A stretch of 64,000 nt of DNA from positions 1 to 64,000 of the forward strand of contig NXFV01001873.1 of assembly GCA_002803225.1 (NCBI GenBank). The letters are read 5' to 3'. How positions within the stretch are numbered: the first letter of the stretch is position 1; each line of letters starts with the position of its first letter. The DNA is from Gamarada debralockiae. Taxonomy: Eukaryota; Ascomycota; Leotiomycetes; Helotiales; Hyphodiscaceae. The notes beneath the pieces are model-generated. The model did not search any database. It worked only from the letters and a program-made list of their open reading frames with translations, and had not been told where the DNA came from. Shown one piece after another: positions 1,541-37,423 of this stretch. A program made the translations under genes and the position numbers.

Positions 1541-1575
1541 CTTGCAAGCAGATGTCTTAGCTGGTCCAGGTAGTC

Positions 1576-2795
1576 GTGCTTCGGCTTTCTGCCCTTCCAG
1601 ACACGACCAGTCCTGTATCGACTGTCCTATGCATGTATCTCTGTACAGCCCTACCCGGCTACAGCCTAGCCGATCCTTATGGCCAGCTACAGTCCTTACC
1701 CGTACCGAATCGGCCGTGGGAAGAAGTCTCACTTGATTTTATTACCCAATTGCCAGAGTCCTATATAGGGACCAGGGCGTACGACTCTATTTTAGTAGTA
1801 GTAGACCGCTATACTAAAATGGCTCAGTTTATACCGACAACAACTGATCTAGCAGCCCCTGAGTTTGCTGCTCTGTTTCACGAAAATATCGAACTTGGGT
1901 ACGGCTCCCCAAGAGGAATAGTCTCTGACAGAGATACCAGGATTATAGCCAAATTCTGGGCTGAAGTCTGTACTTACTCCCTAATCAAGAGGCGCCTAAG
2001 TACTGCCTTTCACCCCCAGACAGATGGACAGACTGAGATACTGAACCGGACCCTTGAGAACTACCTACGAGCCTATACAAGCCTTGAGCAGATGAACTGG
2101 GCTATGCTACTGCCTAGTGCTGAGTTTGCATACAGCAATAGCCGAAGCTCAAGTACTAAGACGACCACCTTCATGGCCTTGTACGGCTATCATCCAGAGC
2201 TCAGGATCGATTTGGATGCCGTGGACGACATCACCGGAGGGGAGGCACCAGCGGCTCGGAACCGAGTCGGAAGGCTACAGGAACTCAGGAACAGACTCCG
2301 AGAAGAGCTTCTTAATAGTCAGGAACGACAGACCAAATACTACAATCAAAGACATCAACCTAAGCTCTTTAAACGAGGTAGCCTAGTCAAGCTTTCTACT
2401 AGGAATTTACGACTCAAAAACAAGAAGCTACAGCCTAGATAGGTTGGTCCTTTTAGGGTACTAGAAAGAATCGGTTCCCAGGCTTATCGAATAGTACTCC
2501 CAGAGAAGTACGAACGACTACATGATGTATTCCCTGTACAGTTTATCGAAGACTACCGACCCAAGGAAGGACAGCCGCTACTACCGCTCCCTGATCTCGA
2601 GGATGATACGGAATGGGAGGTAGAAGAAGTCAAAGATCAGGCTATCATCAAAGGACAGCTACACTACTTAGCCAATGGGAAGGCTGGTCGACAGAGTATA
2701 ACCAATGGGTCCCTAAGGAAGACATGGGGAATGCTAAGTAGGCTGTACAACGCTATGAGAGGCTTCAGAAGAGAAAGCAGACAAAAAAGGACTAA
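1576..2795 (+). mobile_element. Ty3/gypsy retrotransposon: integrase core plus chromodomain, degenerate
   Basis: The translated region shows a retroviral-type integrase core: RPWEEVSLDFITQLP, then DSILVVVDRYTKMAQFIP (first catalytic Asp region), GIVSDRDTR (second Asp) and FHPQTDGQTEILNRTLENYL (catalytic Glu region). An in-frame TAG at 2440-2442 interrupts the frame. Homology continues downstream through a C-terminal module ending in DVFPVQFIEDYRP, and then a chromodomain-like segment beginning EWEVEEVKDQ. In the chromodomain the frame shifts by one near 2690 (WEGWSTEYNQWVPKED is in the next frame) and a further TAG follows. Reverse transcriptase, protease and gag are absent, so this is a dead 3' pol fragment of a chromovirus-like element. 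Confidence 0.85.
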
Positions 2796-30024: not shown

Positions 30025-33000
30025 TCACGTCCCAAGCTGTGCATCACTCACATAATGAGATCCACCAGTACATCTGTAACCGCCACTTTGCTTGATCCAT
30101 CGGAATCCCATACAACAAACACCCATCTCTCTCAACTTCCTTTGCACCTGCTCTTCTTTTTTCCGTCGTTCAAGCTCCACTTGTCGCTGCCTCTCGAGCT
30201 CTCGTTGAATCCTTTCTCGCTCTGCTTTGACCCCCATCTCCTTGATTCGGGCGAGCTCGCGCAAACGCAAGAGTTCGATGCGCTCAGCTTTATCCTTGGC
30301 CTGTGCTTCTCGTAGAGCAGCGGCGGCGGCTTCTTCTGCCAATCGTCTCTCCTTATCCTCTGCAGCACGCATATCCTCTTCTTTAGCTTGGAGTCGTTGC
30401 ATAATCTCTTGGTCGTTGCGCTCAGCTGCTTTCTTGTCTTGCTGGAGCTGTTGCCATACGGCATCTGACACGCCATCATCACGGAGTTCGTCTGCTGGTT
30501 CCGGATTAGTCGCACTCTCATTCTCTGACTTCCCTCCAGGAGACTCTTTCCTCCTTGCTGCAGCGGATGAGCTGTGAAAGCTCGGAGGAGGCGGGGTTTG
30601 AAAAGAAGGCTGCGTCTGGAGTTGCTTGGTAATAGAGGGACGAGATGCAGAAGTAGCACTGTTTCTGCCTTGTTTGGCGGCCAACATGACCTGTAGACAA
30701 TTCATAGCCACTTCCTCGGATAGAATGAGCTGATCGATCTTGGTAGCATTGGCTTTAAAAACCTCTCGTGTCATACTCTTCGCCAAAGTTTCGATGTCTC
30801 GGGCATTTCCCCATTCTGGAAGCTTTGAAAGTTGTTTGATGATATCGGAGAAGATTTGACGGACAAGCGGATGCTTGAGGGATGGACAGACAATCTGGTT
30901 TTGATTGAGTTTCGCTTCCAAAATACTCAGACAGTGCTCTGGACTCAACGAGGGAAATATGATCTCATCCGCAAACCGACTACTCAAGCCTTCGTTGACA
31001 TGGAGTAAGTTGTTCATATCTTGGTCGTATCCAGCGAGGATTATGATCATCTTGCCGGCAAATTTGGGCTTCGTCATATTATCAACAAGCTCGTTGATGG
31101 CTTCCTGAGCAAAATGCCCTTCCCCGAGGCGATAAGCTTCATCTACAAACAGGACTTTGCCCAAGCCCCGTTCCAACTGTTTGATTGTCTTCGGCCCTGT
31201 CTGACCAACGAACTGTCCTATGAGGTCACTTGCTGAACACTCGACTACTTCGGCTTGGGACAAGAAGCCGAGGTCGTAGTATACCTGACCAAATTTGCGA
31301 GCTGTCGTCGTCTTTCCGGTACCTAGTTACGTGGTCAGTTATTTGCGTTGTGGGGTAGATTTGACCTCAGGAGACATACCAGGCGGACCCTTGAAGATGA
31401 AGTTCATTGGGATCTGACCTGTTGGATCGAGACCTAGAGCGCGCATTCCTTTGGCGACTTTCAGATATCCATCGAGCTGATTAATTATAGACTCGCAGCC
31501 AATGACGCCCTTAAATAAATCCTGAAGATTGATCTCCGCACCTGAAGCTCTATCGAAATCGAGGTCGAGGTCCTGAGGCTCGAATATAAAGTCGATGGAT
31601 CTGTCTGCATCTGGTAGCCTAGATTGTCGCGACTGATAGTTGCTCTTGGCCTTCGAAATGAGGTTTTCGACATCTCCACCATTTCCAAAGTTCAATCCCT
31701 TCCGAGCTCGGCTCAAACATTCGATAGCTACGGAAATAGCTTCGTCAGTTGCTCCTAAACCTTGATTCTTAAGCTTCAGTTCCAAAATCTCCTGGAGTTC
31801 TGCATCATCAAAGTCTTCAAATCGAAACGCATCAGAAAGTTGGAATCGTCGAGTCAGACCAGGGTTGACGTTTTGGAACATTTCGGTCATCTTATCTTCA
31901 TAGCCAAGAAGCAAGACACATCGATCCTCTCCGGGCACGCTTTGGACTTCCGCAACGATGGTGTCGATGACGGCGGTTTTGTAGACATCAGCGCCAGTGG
32001 CACCTCCCCCTTCCTTAGACCCAGAGGAGAGCATATATGCTTCATCGATAATGAGGACCTTGCCGACGGTAGTTTCAAGAATTGCTTTGGTGTTTGCCTC
32101 GGATTGTCCAATTACGCTGCCGATGAAATCTGAGGGGTTCTTGGCAACGACTAAATCAAAGACTGTCAGCGAACAAAACCAAGACGACTCTGTCTAAGGC
32201 GGAGATTACCTTCGCCATTGCTCAGAAGCCCAATATCTGCCAGTATGCGGCCATAAAGCTTTGCCACTGTAGTCTTTCCTGTTCCAGGCGACCCCAGAAA
32301 CACTCGGTTTAGGGATACCTCAATCAACGGCTTCTCTTGAATCTCTCGCTCATAATTAGTCTTAATAAGATCAAGCATGAAGCGAACAGAGTCCTTGACT
32401 GATTTCAGGCCTGTCAACTTCTGCAATTGTTCCCATGCCGAGCACTTGAGAATAGCTTTGGATGGATCTGGACCAATCAGGTCTTCTTTGGTGAAGGTGT
32501 AATCGTCTGGCGTGAGTCCATCGCGCCGTTCCTTCGTCAGCCGATCAGATTGGCGTGTCCGAATTTGTGCGAACAGATTCTCCAATGCTCGAGCATTGCC
32601 GAATCCATCTCGTCCCCTGCCTCTCCCCAGTCGACGAACAACAATTCTCATAAAAAGACCGTCAATCCCATCCTCGATATAAAGGGGAGATTGATAGAAC
32701 TTGTTCATCTGGAACTGCAGCATGCTCAAGAGTTCTCCATCTGCATAGTCCTCGAAGTGAAGTGTATACGGAATTCTACTCACAAATCCAGGGTTATGTT
32801 CGAAGAATTTCTCCATTTGCTTGCGGTACCCAGCAAAGACGAAGACAATCCTTCCAACCAAATTTTCGATCTCGGCAAGCAAGAAGTCCAGGACAGTCTT
32901 CCCGCCATGGTTGTAAACCTCCGCAAGCTGGTAAGCCTCGTCAATGAAGTAGACTCCACCTTCGGAGTTTTCAAGTTCCTTGAAGTGATTCTTGACCTCT

Positions 33001-36000
33001 GCAACACCTTCATGTGCGAGGCGAGCACCCGTAGTTTCAACGAAACCATCTCCTGAGAGTACTTGAAGGGATGTGAGTACTTTCGCATAGTGTCTCGCAA
33101 CTGTGGTTTTCCCTAGATAGAACTATTAGATCCACTCAAGATAGCCTGAAGATGCAAAACTTGCCAGTGCCCGGGTTGCCTAATAGCACAAGCCCAAGAC
33201 GCTCTTTCCTCAAATCAGTACCTTGTCGTATCGAAGTCTCGACCTTGGACTTGATTTTCAGGACCTGGGACTTGACCTCTTCGAGACCAATCATCTCCAT
33301 GATCTTGTCAATTGCTGGATTGCTGGCATTTTCTTGGTCCTTCTGGCGTTGCCATTCGGTCTTGGCCGGGGAGACGTTGTGGTCAATGCAGATTTTGAGA
33401 TGTTCTCGGAGTTTTTCGGTTTTATTTGGAGGCTTTCTCGGTCGCGGAGATGTTGTTAGCTTTTGAGTTGAACCTTGACTGACCGGCAAAGTTGCATATG
33501 GAGTGCTGGGACTAGCCGAGGACTGTGGAGGAGGTTCAAGTTTGACCTTATTGGCTAAATCTCTTGTCGCAACGAGATCACTCCGTAGTTGGGAAAGAAC
33601 CACCTTGCGTTCCACATTTAATTTCATATCCTTCATGTTTTGAGTGACCCGGTCAATCTCTTCTTGAATCTTGGCATATTCTTTGCGATGCTTTTGTTCT
33701 TCGGCATCTCTCCGTTGCTGGTCCTCGAGAGCCTTCCTGGCTTTCTTTTCTGCCTCCCTTCGCTCCCGTTCGCATTTCTTGCATACCAGAGGAGCTGACG
33801 CACCCTCGTAGCAGTGCCACGACTGTGTGTGACCGTTACCACATTGTTGCTTCTGAACTACCATGCATTTTATTTTAGAGTGATCAAATAGCTGATGGCA
33901 GCTACTTGGACATTTATGAATGCCACATTTCAGCATTACTCCACTAAATCAAGGAAGTCAGCTGTGTTCAATTTGATGGCAATCTTACTTATTCTTCCGA
34001 TTTGAACATACCAAGGTTCTTTACATCCACCATCAGGACAGTCGGTCTCAAATGCATCAGGTGATTTCAGAAGTGCAGTTCGATCCGGATGCTTCTCGCA
34101 TTTGATGGGGAATCCTTCGTAAACGTGACCATTCTCCTTCAAATGATCGAGGAAACCTCGCCAAACATCGCTTCCCTTCCGAGCGTGAATGAAAGTCTCC
34201 GAATTCCCGATCAGGATCAATGCGTCGCGCGCCCGAGAAAGCAAAACGTTCAAGCGTTCTTTTTGGGCCAAAAAGCCAATGTCGTGCGACTTATTGCTTC
34301 TTGTGAGTGAAACAAGAACAATATCACTTTCTTCACCTTGATAATTGTCTGTGACAAGCAGTTAGCCTTGCCTAAGCAACACTTGAACAACAAAGTGGAA
34401 TCAAAAAGGCGCAAAGAAATAAAAGCGGGTCATGCAGAAGAGCAGATGTGCTGCTTACCGACAGTTGAAATGCGGAGCGACGGCTTTGATGATTTGGTGC
34501 TGAGATCTGTTAAGAGTCCAGCCCGAACAAGATCAAACTTGTCCAGATCATTCAGAATGGGATCGTTCTCCTTAGAAAGCTGGTCCCGGAGCAATTTGAG
34601 CTGTCCAAGGTACGGCGTCAACACAACCATCTTGTCCGAGCCATATCCCTGCTGTGCAAGATAACGAACACACTTCAGGATCATTTGTGCTTCGAATGCA
34701 TTTTGCTTGGATGAAGTTGAGAGCCCATCTCTAAATTCTCGGGATTCCTTCAATTCAATCTCTAATTCAGAGTGATTGATGAACATGACGTTGTCGCGAA
34801 ATCCTCGAAGATCATCACGATGTAGTGTTGAGTCCGCGTCCGTCAAGTCGGGATAGGTCATGCGACGAATGAGAGAGGAAATTTCGGGTCTCATCCGATG
34901 TTGCTTCATTAATGTAATATGAGGAACACCTTTGTGGACCAGCCTTTCAAAAAGCGATCGATTGAGATCATAGCCATTGCCTCCCTCAACACTGAGCTCG
35001 TAGCTGCATTTCGGCCGAAGCTGTTGGTGATCTCCGATGAGGATGAGCTGCTCAGTCTGGGGTCCCATAGCTGTAAGAATATGTGCTTCTAAAATTTCGC
35101 CAGCTTCCTCGACTAGGACAACGCCGGGAGAGGCGGATTGGATGGCCGCGGAAAACTTGGCGGCGCCATTTGTTGTGCAGGCAACGATTCTCTTCTCCTT
35201 GATGATCTTTGCATCTCTTTGGCCGAAGATATGACCAATTTCAGCTTCATCGTCATTGAAATCCTGCCCAATACTACCAATCTCGTCAACGTGATCTTGA
35301 AGTATAGCTGCTTGCCATCGACTTTGGGCAGACCTCCGCATTTCTGTTGGCATTCTCCAAACTCGAAAAGCTCCGGGTGGGAGAATATTTTGGAAAGCAC
35401 CAGCGTGAGTTTCGCCCCTAATCCACCGATCGAGAAGATAAAACTCCCCAATAGCCTTTCCTCGTCGACCAACCCGCGTCATGCCACCGTCAGTTTCTTC
35501 TGGGACGGAGAAAGCCTCGAAGAAGGGGAGGTCTTCTGGAGCGAATTCGAGATAGGCCATTATGTGACTCTTGTGGGTATTTGCAGAATACCGTTTGAAG
35601 GCCTCTTGAAGTCGTGTTTCGTGCTGCTGGAGTCGGACCTCGAGTTTGTTGATTTGATCCCATTGTGATGGATTCATCTTGGAACCTCCTTGCTCGTAAA
35701 GAGTGAGCGGTTTTGTTCGAGCTGTAGATTTCCCACCAAGCCGAACCATGTCCGCGACGGGAATACCAATGTCAATCAATTCCTCGAGAAACTGGTCGAG
35801 GGCATGATTCGTAAAACAGACGACAAGAATTTTTTGATCTGTATAGTTGTGAAGTGCCTTCGCAACTAAGGCTCCGATAAAGGATTTTCCAGTTCCTGAA
35901 TGAATTTAGTGACTGATACAAGGCACAAACGTTTTGAACTCACCCGGAGGACCTTGAATTAAGCTCACTCTCTGAGAAAGGCTAGCACAGAGTGACTTCA

Positions 36001-37423
36001 TCTGGGACTCATCCAGCTTGATACTCTTCGTTGTCTGAAAGACTTTCCGGAGATCCTTCCCATCATGGTGCTGGAGGTCTTTTGTCAAAAGGGTTGGTTG
36101 GAAAGATGGTCCTTGCAGAAAAGTGTCCTCATCCCAGTGAATTAGTTCCTCTGCGAGGGGAAATTCTTTCATTTCTTGCAATCGCTTAAGGAACGGTTCG
36201 AAAGCGAACACCGCGGTATCGAGCTGGACTAATTTGATATTGCCCGCTGTTTTCATTTTGGAGAGAACATACGACAATGTTGAATCGTTCTTGAATTGAA
36301 TTGTAATCCTGGCTGGCACCTTTGACAATTCATCTTCATCTCTGTGAATAGTTGGAAATGCAACTGCTTCATCGTCCAAAAGTAGGCATGCCATATTACC
36401 ATGACGTAGAATGTGCCGATTGTGGGACAGGTAATCTTTGCGTTTCGACGGTTCAATGCTGCTCAACTGTGGAAGGTCCTTGGGACATTCAAGCACGACG
36501 CCCCAAGGTCGATGGGTCTTGCGGTCTGTCACTAGGTCTAAACCAGCCACTTGAAGATGATTGATGACAAGTCCTTTGTGACGACCGGGTCTCGCGCCTA
36601 TCAATTTCTGGAGCTCTTCTCGTATTTCGCCGACCATATCCTCTCGCAGCAGTCGAAATTGGTTGTCCACATGAACAACCCAGAGGGAAGACGCCATTTT
36701 TGGGTCTTCGAGGAAGTCGGCCGTACGTAGGAAAGGGCGCTCCTTGGATAAAAGCTCATCTGCAGTTGGCATGATGGAAATCTTCCGATGATCCTCATTA
36801 TCATTGTCGTGCCTGCCACCGGGCTTCACGTCCGCATCGAAGTGGAGGTTGCTAGATCCCAGTAGCAATGCGTGCTTGATTTTTTGTCCCAAGATTCGAG
36901 TTTCGCCATCGGCAGATTTCAGGATCGAGTCCAGGATGTCAGGTGATTTTGCCAATGCGAGATAGGGAGCGGATGCGTCGCCAGGCAAGAAGGCCAGTTG
37001 TAGCAGTAGCCAAGAAAACGTTCGAGAAGCAGGTGAATCCAACAAATGGCCTCGGAATGCCTTCGAAAAAGCGTCCCAGAAGAAAGGTGGATCGACCATG
37101 CTGACAAGAATTCGGGTGAGCGCTGTCCCAGACTCGATGCCTTTCAACGACGGCTCCTGCAGGTATTGAAGTAGCACCACAGCATGCTCATTTATGAATG
37201 AAGGAGATGTATCAAATCGAACGCATGCTTGAACTGCAGCAAGACCCTTAGGACTTGAAAGCAGTTTGTGGGAGCAAGACGCGGGATCTGCCTGAGCGCA
37301 AACGGCCTCGATGAACAGCTTGCCGTCCTTAGAAGAATTTAAAGATCTCCGATTGAATAATACATCATGGAAGAACTTGAGGAGGCGAGAAGCTCGCATG
37401 TCGTCTGTGGTGGTTGAAGCCAT
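30025..37423 (-). CDS. ZNFX1/Hrr1-like SF1 helicase fused to NFX1-type zinc cluster and three CbxX/CfqX AAA domains
   Basis: Seven exons on the minus strand (35,944-37,423; 34,459-35,895; 34,012-34,348; 33,165-33,943; 32,210-33,112; 31,380-32,150; 30,025-31,322) give 2,334 aa with every junction in frame. The intron at 33,113-33,164 has a GC donor. After a ~490-residue N-terminal region comes an UPF1-type superfamily 1 helicase. Its motifs are GPPGTGKS (I, about 491-498), LVEEAGE (II, about 754-760), GDHQQLRP (III, 781-788), QHRMRPEI (IV, 825-832), NYQGEESD (V, about 974) and LNVLLSRARD (VI, about 1005). A Cys/His cluster (CGIHKCPSSCHQLF, about 1091) resembles NFX1 fingers and is followed by a charged coiled coil. 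Three AAA modules of CbxX/CfqX type then follow, with Walker A GNPGTGKT (1340), GSPGTGKT (1618) and GPPGTGKT (1900). Their Walker B motifs are YFIDEAY, LIIDEAY and LFVDEAY. A Glu/Arg-rich coiled coil precedes a CxxG tail. Related helicases act in small-RNA silencing (fission yeast Hrr1) and RNA surveillance (ZNFX1); that role here is inferred. Confidence 0.9.

What the first reader, a model, noticed from the sequence alone, without database searches (positions are those of the whole stretch)
30025..37423. One polypeptide joins a ZNFX1/Hrr1-like RNA helicase, NFX1-like zinc cluster, three CbxX-type AAA motors and a coiled-coil tail
Seen: all six SF1 helicase motifs, a Cys/His cluster, and three separate AAA modules each with intact Walker A and B, in a frame-consistent 2,334-residue model. 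Known: Hrr1 and ZNFX1 relatives act in small-RNA silencing and RNA defence; CbxX/CfqX AAA proteins (rubisco activase CbbX, EccA, SpoVK) remodel protein complexes. Inference: a self-contained machine that could couple RNA unwinding to remodelling of a bound ribonucleoprotein complex. Similar fusions may be annotated in other Pezizomycotina, but I know of no defined function.
Basis: partly seen in the sequence, partly recalled or inferred. Interest (0 to 1): 0.8.

Follow-up and report, generated by a model that had tools for sequence, protein, structure and literature searches.

The report
Fungal RNA helicase with three motors
One very large fungal protein joins an RNA helicase related to the human antiviral protein ZNFX1 to three protein-remodelling motors and a tiny, highly conserved end piece; the design is old and shared by many fungi, yet its job is unknown.

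Summary
On the minus strand, 37423 to 30025, seven exons give one open 2,334-residue protein: a ZNFX1-like N-terminal part, a complete SF1 RNA helicase, a Cys/His cluster, three CbxX-type AAA modules with intact Walker A, Walker B and arginine-finger positions, a coiled coil and a short tail. It is not a gene-model accident: 118 of the 120 best homologues carry all seven tested segments in the same order, in Ascomycota and Basidiomycota. Among solved structures the helicase is closest to human ZNFX1.

(2) The same genome has a separate canonical ZNFX1 with an RZ finger, so this is a paralogous variant. (3) Pore loops differ: AAA3 is CbbX-like, AAA2 partly, AAA1 not. (4) The AAA trio also occurs without the helicase.

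Best reading: an RNA-surveillance or antiviral machine in which RNA engaged by the helicase licenses an AAA assembly to remodel a bound protein. That function is inferred, not shown.

The parts
30025..37423 (-). whole coding gene, 7 exons, 2,334 aa
36854..37411 (-). residues 5-190: all-helical, possibly ARM-repeat-like N-terminal domain (predicted)
   Evidence: AlphaFold2 model of exon 1, mean pLDDT 85.1; weak ARM-protein matches by Foldseek
36044..36805 (-). residues 207-460: ZNFX1-like region before the helicase core (PT.DE...PFLR, FRLLRED)
   Evidence: alignment to 9q9z from residue 207; exon 1 model, Foldseek 9q9z E 2.8e-6
34131..36025 (-). residues 467-1045: SF1 helicase core, motifs I, Ia, II-VI (spans introns 1 and 2)
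33772..34100 (-). residues 1056-1142: Cys/His cluster, ZNFX1 post-helicase type (spans intron 3)
   Evidence: most of its Cys/His positions kept in 106-118 of 119 sequences, His1128 not; aligned to ZNFX1
32538..33309 (-). residues 1297-1536: AAA1, Walker A/B and Arg finger intact, pore loop not CbbX-like
31615..32435 (-). residues 1571-1824: AAA2, intact motifs, partly CbbX-like pore loop
30760..31521 (-). residues 1856-2090: AAA3, intact motifs, CbbX-like pore loop
   Evidence: Foldseek best 3syk CbbX 9.3e-13
30139..30480 (-). residues 2184-2297: long-helix (coiled-coil) segment
   Evidence: two long helices at high pLDDT
30040..30126 (-). residues 2302-2330: conserved C-terminal Cys-Trp-Tyr-Cys-His module, three short strands
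   Evidence: 115 of 120 homologues by a strict pattern; mean pairwise identity 0.70, highest of 13 regions by a small margin; pLDDT about 86-93
33113..33164 (-). intron 4, GC-AG, inside the AAA1 P-loop codons

Best explanation
It is a ZNFX1-type RNA helicase in which the NFX1-finger and RZ-finger half of canonical ZNFX1 is replaced by three CbxX-type AAA modules, a coiled coil and a new C-terminal module. Most likely it works in RNA surveillance or antiviral defence: the N-terminal and helicase half engages aberrant or viral RNA, RNA- and ATP-driven changes reach the AAA trio, two chains (2 x 3 AAA) or some higher oligomer build a CbxX-like ring, and the pore loops of AAA3 (helped by AAA2) pull on a protein bound to that RNA, so the RNP is taken apart; the tail recruits or recognises a partner. 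Shown: gene structure, domain content, conserved catalytic motifs, unequal pore loops, conserved tail, deep conservation. Inferred: RNA as ligand, ring formation and its 2 x 3 make-up, remodelling, tail function, defence role.
For: Closest solved relative is the ZNFX1 helicase core; the papers seen place ZNFX1 relatives in RNA immunity and RNAi (PMC11959080 abstract and section 1.1; PMC9276528 passages); the anti-phage helicase MkoA is the best PADLOC match, 250 bits (first model). All three AAA modules keep Walker A, Walker B and Arg-finger residues across 119 sequences and resemble CbbX and EccA1. The host has RNAi genes: RdRP, Piwi, RNase III matches. At least ten species among the 120 best hits carry two copies (read off the names), and the genome holds broken or truncated family copies; that such turnover is common in defence genes is recalled, not tested.
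Against: No expression, binding, genetic or virus data. Fungal helicases of this kin also serve endogenous silencing, so defence is not required. Helicase-less AAA-trio proteins exist, so the trio can work without the helicase. AAA1 lacks a CbbX-like pore loop, so the trio may not thread protein. The helicase and AAA cores are highly conserved, with no sign of the fast-changing receptor surface expected in an arms race. The second Piwi locus (C1049) has an inner stop in one of its three pieces, so only one clean Argonaute-like locus was seen.
Confidence: 0.42

Rival explanations
1. Switch, not motor: the AAA modules act as a nucleotide-gated oligomerisation scaffold, as ATP binding activates RNF213, and the output comes from the coil and tail recruiting a partner.
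For: AAA1 pore loop is conserved but not CbbX-like; the tail is the best-conserved region, narrowly; RNF213 is activated by ATP binding rather than hydrolysis (PMC12075652, abstract and passages).
Against: All three modules keep Walker B and Arg-finger residues, whereas in RNF213 only two of six units can bind and hydrolyse ATP; the tail is not an RZ finger by Pfam.
Confidence: 0.25
2. Housekeeping RNA control: an Upf1/ZNFX1-like factor that clears proteins from the fungus's own mRNAs or silencing transcripts, with no defence role.
For: Deep conservation across Ascomycota and Basidiomycota; Sad-3/Hrr1-type helicases are tied to endogenous silencing (PMC5384783 passages).
Against: Copy number varies among species and broken copies exist; the genome already has a canonical ZNFX1.
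Confidence: 0.25
3. Gene-prediction artefact: neighbouring helicase and AAA genes read as one.
For: Many database entries carry only the AAA half, and no transcript was seen; the homologues are themselves predictions.
Against: The zinc cluster and AAA1 share one open exon; 118 of 120 best homologues have all seven segments in order; junctions are clean in most of 119 rows; a second contig has the same exon layout.
Confidence: 0.02

Closest known systems
Human ZNFX1 (PDB 9q9z, helicase core)
   Different: No NFX1 finger over the Pfam cut-off, no RZ finger; carries an AAA trio, coil and new tail instead.
CbbX (3syk), EccA1 (9lur), SpoVK: CbxX-type AAA
   Same: AAA fold and motifs; AAA3 pore loop DLIGQFVGQTGPKT against CbbX DLVGQYIGHTAPKT.
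   Different: Three modules in one chain, 27-32% identical to each other, below the NCBIfam equivalog cut-offs; fused to a helicase.
Mokosh helicase MkoA (PADLOC)
   Same: Helicase residues 464-1044 match at 250 bits (first model).
   Different: The match covers the helicase only; the PADLOC library is of anti-phage systems, the window's gene is fungal.
RNF213
   Same: Giant chain with AAA units and a small Cys/His module (passages).
   Different: Dynein-like six-unit core and E3 module; no sequence kinship was tested.
Canonical ZNFX1 in the same genome (C635)
   Same: Helicase half 30% identical over fused residues 202-1112.
   Different: Uninterrupted 1,938-residue frame with many Cys/His fingers and an RZ finger, PF20173 at 88 bits.

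Membership tests
ZNFX1 | SF1 helicase core closest to ZNFX1 | tested here: met
   among solved structures: 9q9z 300 bits against 116 for NAM7
ZNFX1 | ARM-type N-terminal fold | tested here: inconclusive
   twelve helices in residues 5-187; exon 1 model's best hit is 9q9z (2.8e-6), armadillo proteins only at E 0.1 or worse
ZNFX1 | array of NFX1-type zinc fingers | tested here: not met
ZNFX1 | C-terminal RZ finger | tested here: not met
   own tail and a composed tail give no PF20173 match; the C635 control gives 88 bits
ZNFX1 | dsRNA binding | not testable with these tools
   needs protein
CbxX/CbbX AAA | AAA core with Walker A, Walker B, Arg finger | tested here: met
   three modules
CbxX/CbbX AAA | aromatic-hydrophobic-Gly pore loop | tested here: inconclusive
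   AAA3 yes, AAA2 partly, AAA1 no
CbxX/CbbX AAA | score above the NCBIfam SpoVK, CbbX or EccA equivalog cut-off | tested here: not met
   397.7/368/364.3 bits over 3 stretches against 422.95/459.25/466.65
CbxX/CbbX AAA | hexamer | not testable with these tools
   needs protein
Hrr1/SAD-3 | phylogenetic placement with Hrr1/SAD-3 | not tested
   no Hrr1 or SAD-3 sequence was obtained
Mokosh | MkoA helicase homology | tested here: met
   250 bits
Mokosh | MkoA with its partner gene in a prokaryotic locus | not tested
   window is fungal; partner not searched

The most novel reading that the evidence does not exclude
A single-chain RNA-immunity machine of fungi: a ZNFX1-type helicase senses foreign RNA and switches on an AAA assembly of two chains (2 x 3 modules) that strips or unfolds RNA-bound protein such as a mycovirus RNP, with a new class of Cys-Cys-His C-terminal module as substrate or partner receptor; the AAA trio is a mobile effector cassette that fungi have repeatedly detached from the helicase.
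Probability: 0.17. Interest if true: 0.85.

Novelty: new variant of a known kind. Interest (0 to 1): 0.52.

Why it matters
More than a hundred listed fungal proteins, and probably many more, belong to this family and are named only by transfer ('NFX1-type zinc finger-containing protein 1', 'stage V sporulation protein K', 'CbbX'). Those names hide that it is neither: it joins an RNA helicase of the ZNFX1 kind, central to animal RNA immunity and inheritance, to CbxX-type motors. The near-invariant, unnamed tail gives a precise handle for finding partners. If the AAA part acts on RNA-bound protein, it would be a way of RNA surveillance that needs no Argonaute or E3 ligase on the same chain.

Tried and rejected
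Gene-fusion artefact: rejected (single exon across the join, homologues, clean junctions). First intron-3 choice: rejected because it replaced a conserved Cys by Trp. Tail as RZ finger: rejected by Pfam, though both hold a short Tyr-x-Cys...His stretch. Bacterial origin of the trio as a unit: the one genome-contig scan (2 peptide patterns, 490 stretches, 12 loci) gave 10 loci of Bacillota-type bacteria with a single CbxX module each, none with a helicase match at E 1e-5 among the frames of 100 aa or more in the DNA held, one weak archaeal locus (L054), and one 'Deltaproteobacteria' contig (L043) that carries the whole gene with matching exon breaks and is read as mis-binned fungal DNA. This does not exclude a bacterial trio, since both patterns came from AAA1. 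Tail outside the family: 816 of 1,163 candidates passed; of the 120 listed, 112 hold an AAA segment of this family and an end tail, 6 more have the family's linker and an end tail, and only P0121 (zinc cluster, then three tails) and P0124 differ, so the search shows little about other families. Order of AAA1-3 in the tree: not read, the tool warned of long branches meeting.

Literature: ten answered searches (two of them were on Mokosh) gave no paper that describes this fused architecture in its listing; the library holds only open-licence papers, so this is weak evidence of absence.
Full report
Observation. The gene lies on the minus strand. I rebuilt it from the bases: seven exons, six introns, start at 37423, stop ending at 30025, 2,334 residues, no inner stop. 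My first attempt gave 2,340 residues; alignment to homologues showed Trp where 112 of 119 sequences have Cys, and a better third intron (34011-33944, GTATGT...TAG with a branch-like CTGAC) restores the Cys (113 of 119 with Cys at that column). Five introns are GT-AG, intron 4 is GC-AG. Exon 4 runs from the zinc cluster through the linker into the AAA1 P-loop in one frame, so the two halves are joined by continuous coding sequence.

It is one protein elsewhere too. A whole-length search gave 2,126 proteins at E 1e-3 or better among 7,991 scored candidates (capped). Of the 120 listed, 118 are longer than 2,200 residues (the others are 1,840 and 2,050), and 118 carry all seven tested segments (two N-terminal, helicase, zinc, AAA1-3) in the same order; P0030 lacks the N-terminal two and P0117 the zinc segment. 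Identities listed run from 48 to 67%. Names show, by recalled taxonomy, Leotiomycetes, dermatophytes, lichen fungi and many mushrooms. The homologues are predictions, not transcripts. At the six exon junctions, rows with an insertion number 0, 4, 1, 3, 1 and 3 of 119, and rows missing three or more of the eight flanking residues 3, 0, 8, 1, 0 and 0 of 119; the rest are clean.

Anatomy. Pfam finds AAA_11, AAA_12, three AAA stretches and two AAA_lid_6 stretches. Among solved structures the helicase half is closest to human ZNFX1 (9q9z, 300 bits, E 2.5e-88; NAM7 next at 116 bits; corrected model); the match starts at residue 207, before the helicase core, and runs into the Cys/His region behind it. 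The NF-X1 Pfam model stays below its cut-off on the corrected sequence (14.0 against 22.7 bits). An AlphaFold2 model of exon 1 (mean pLDDT 85.1) has twelve helices in residues 5-187, then a mixed region; its only Foldseek match under 0.001 is the ZNFX1 helicase core (2.8e-6), followed by weak matches, armadillo proteins among them. The AAA half is closest to CbbX and EccA1 by sequence and AAA3 to CbbX by fold (9.3e-13). The three AAA modules are 27-32% identical to each other.

Conservation (first model plus 118 homologues; corrected model plus the same 118). Helicase motifs and all three Walker A, Walker B and Arg-finger positions are close to invariant. The pore loops are not alike: AAA3 consensus DLVGQYVGQTGPKT is like CbbX DLVGQYIGHTAPKT, AAA2 DFIGSVLGQSESNT lacks the aromatic residue, and AAA1 has a conserved but different TTGSRLANDGVAG. 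Mean pairwise identity, 800 sampled pairs: helicase 1A 0.67, RecA2 side 0.68, AAA1-3 0.66/0.68/0.60, zinc 0.58, region before the helicase 0.48, ARM-like 0.42, helicase insert 0.40, linkers and coil 0.25-0.38, and the last 29 residues 0.70, the highest of the 13 regions, by a small margin and over a short stretch (772 of the 800 pairs usable). The tail thus stands as conserved as the catalytic cores although the 200 residues before it are among the least conserved.

The tail. The pattern C..[GA][FY].[WC]....Y.C.[GA]G is found in 115 of 120 full-length hits by a strict pattern; of the five missed, P0069 has it with one more residue between, P0054 and P0109 are cut off before its end, P0006 and P0088 lack it in their predicted ends (listing). 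The final His is kept in 115 of 120 by a looser pattern. AlphaFold2 on exon 7 (66 sequences, mean pLDDT 82.9, pTM 0.44) gives AAA3, a disordered stretch 228-276, two long helices 288-401 and three short strands at 410-427 with pLDDT about 86-93. Pfam knows no such family. Two returned proteins carry three copies in a row (P0121, P0122). In the same genome a diverged copy lacking the first Cys sits in an unrelated small predicted protein on C968, whose relative P0124 was also returned. Cys, Cys and His suggest a metal site; that is inference.

Relation to canonical ZNFX1. Contig C635 of the same genome holds an uninterrupted 1,938-residue frame with a ZNFX1 helicase, many Cys/His fingers (by eye) and a C-terminal RZ finger (PF20173, 88 bits, cut-off 27); it matches 9q9z somewhat better (352 bits over the 1,620 residues tested) than the fused protein does (300 bits over 938 residues). 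The two are 30% identical over fused residues 202-1112. So the window's gene is a paralogous variant in which the finger half has given way to AAA modules. Whether Hrr1 or SAD-3 groups with either was not tested. A paper on Mucor, read in passages, reports that N. crassa has SAD-3 and two more distant possible paralogues (PMC5384783).

The AAA trio. In a tree of 57 AAA modules (16 fungal proteins, 9 bacterial modules) AAA1, AAA2 and AAA3 each form one group containing ascomycete and basidiomycete rows (support 100/99 each), so the trio is older than that split or was passed on whole; the tool warned that long branches meet, so their order is not read. A search with the trio alone gave 7,220 of 7,997 capped candidates; of the 120 listed, 101 showed no helicase or zinc segment by BLAST (57 trio only, 44 trio with tail), 9 kept the zinc cluster and 10 part of the helicase. 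Many are exon pieces or split models. In a tree of 48 trio sequences (20 homologues and the window for the fused form; 27 picked rows without helicase, one of which, P0306, keeps the zinc cluster) the two labels change 7 times, at least 6 forced by well-supported branches. Some of these are probably truncated models (P0241 and P0254 lie beside fused rows), so 6 is not a count of real losses; but a 100/100 group of six (P0336, P0345, P0347, P0348, P0358, P0359) has N-termini of its own and no tail, and looks like real helicase-less proteins. One from Nannizzia (P0356) ends in a Nab2-type CCCH array (zf-CCCH_2 58.7 bits). The trio therefore seems to be a module that can be paired with different parts.

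Surroundings. The genome (54.3 Mb, 1,112 contigs) has RdRP matches on 5 contigs, Piwi on 2, one of them with an inner stop in one piece, and RNase III on 5 contigs, three with two domains close together as in Dicer (C791, C448, C710). Other family remains: broken trio on C71, a truncated piece on C845, a broken second canonical ZNFX1 on C825.

Mechanism. What is shown is the anatomy and its constraint. The inference runs: ZNFX1 relatives bind or act on foreign or silenced RNA (PMC11959080 abstract and section 1.1; PMC9276528 passages); CbxX AAA proteins remodel protein (recalled; CbbX is a red-type rubisco activase, title); three AAA modules per chain fit a two-chain ring (inference); and a tail under strong constraint suggests a fixed partner or substrate contact. 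A switch-like AAA, as reported for RNF213 (PMC12075652 abstract and passages), and a housekeeping role are the main rivals.

Novelty. The fused proteins are in public databases under borrowed names, but ten answered literature searches listed no description of the architecture; genes with such names appear in expression or proteome lists (Magnaporthe, Inonotus, Aspergillus fumigatus, Fusarium; passages seen), and whether those genes are fused was not tested. A survey of Ustilago maydis helicases does not mention ZNFX1, NFX1 or Hrr1 (term search of the main text). I rate it a new variant of a known kind.

Noticed in passing
L043 5817-13410 (NYXK01000109.1): A contig labelled Deltaproteobacteria MAG carries the whole fused gene with the same exon layout; probably a mis-binned fungal contig.
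   Followed up: partly
window 35943-35896, 33164-33113, 31379-31323: Three of the six introns sit inside P-loop codons (helicase, AAA1, AAA3). Not tested for meaning.
   Followed up: no
G000:C635, locus L039 1713-7529: Uninterrupted canonical ZNFX1 frame with an RZ finger in a fungus; [quoted passage not shown]
   Followed up: partly
G000:C968:5770-5859 (-), locus L012: Small predicted protein with a diverged copy of the tail motif; relative P0124 of 494 aa.
   Followed up: partly
P0356 (Nannizzia gypsea), C-terminus: Helicase-less AAA trio followed by a Nab2-type CCCH finger array.
   Followed up: partly
G000:C71, C845, C825: Broken or truncated copies of the fused family (C71, C845) and of canonical ZNFX1 (C825).
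   Followed up: partly
window 1561-2442 +: Open frame that looks like a retrotransposon integrase (by eye only).
   Followed up: no
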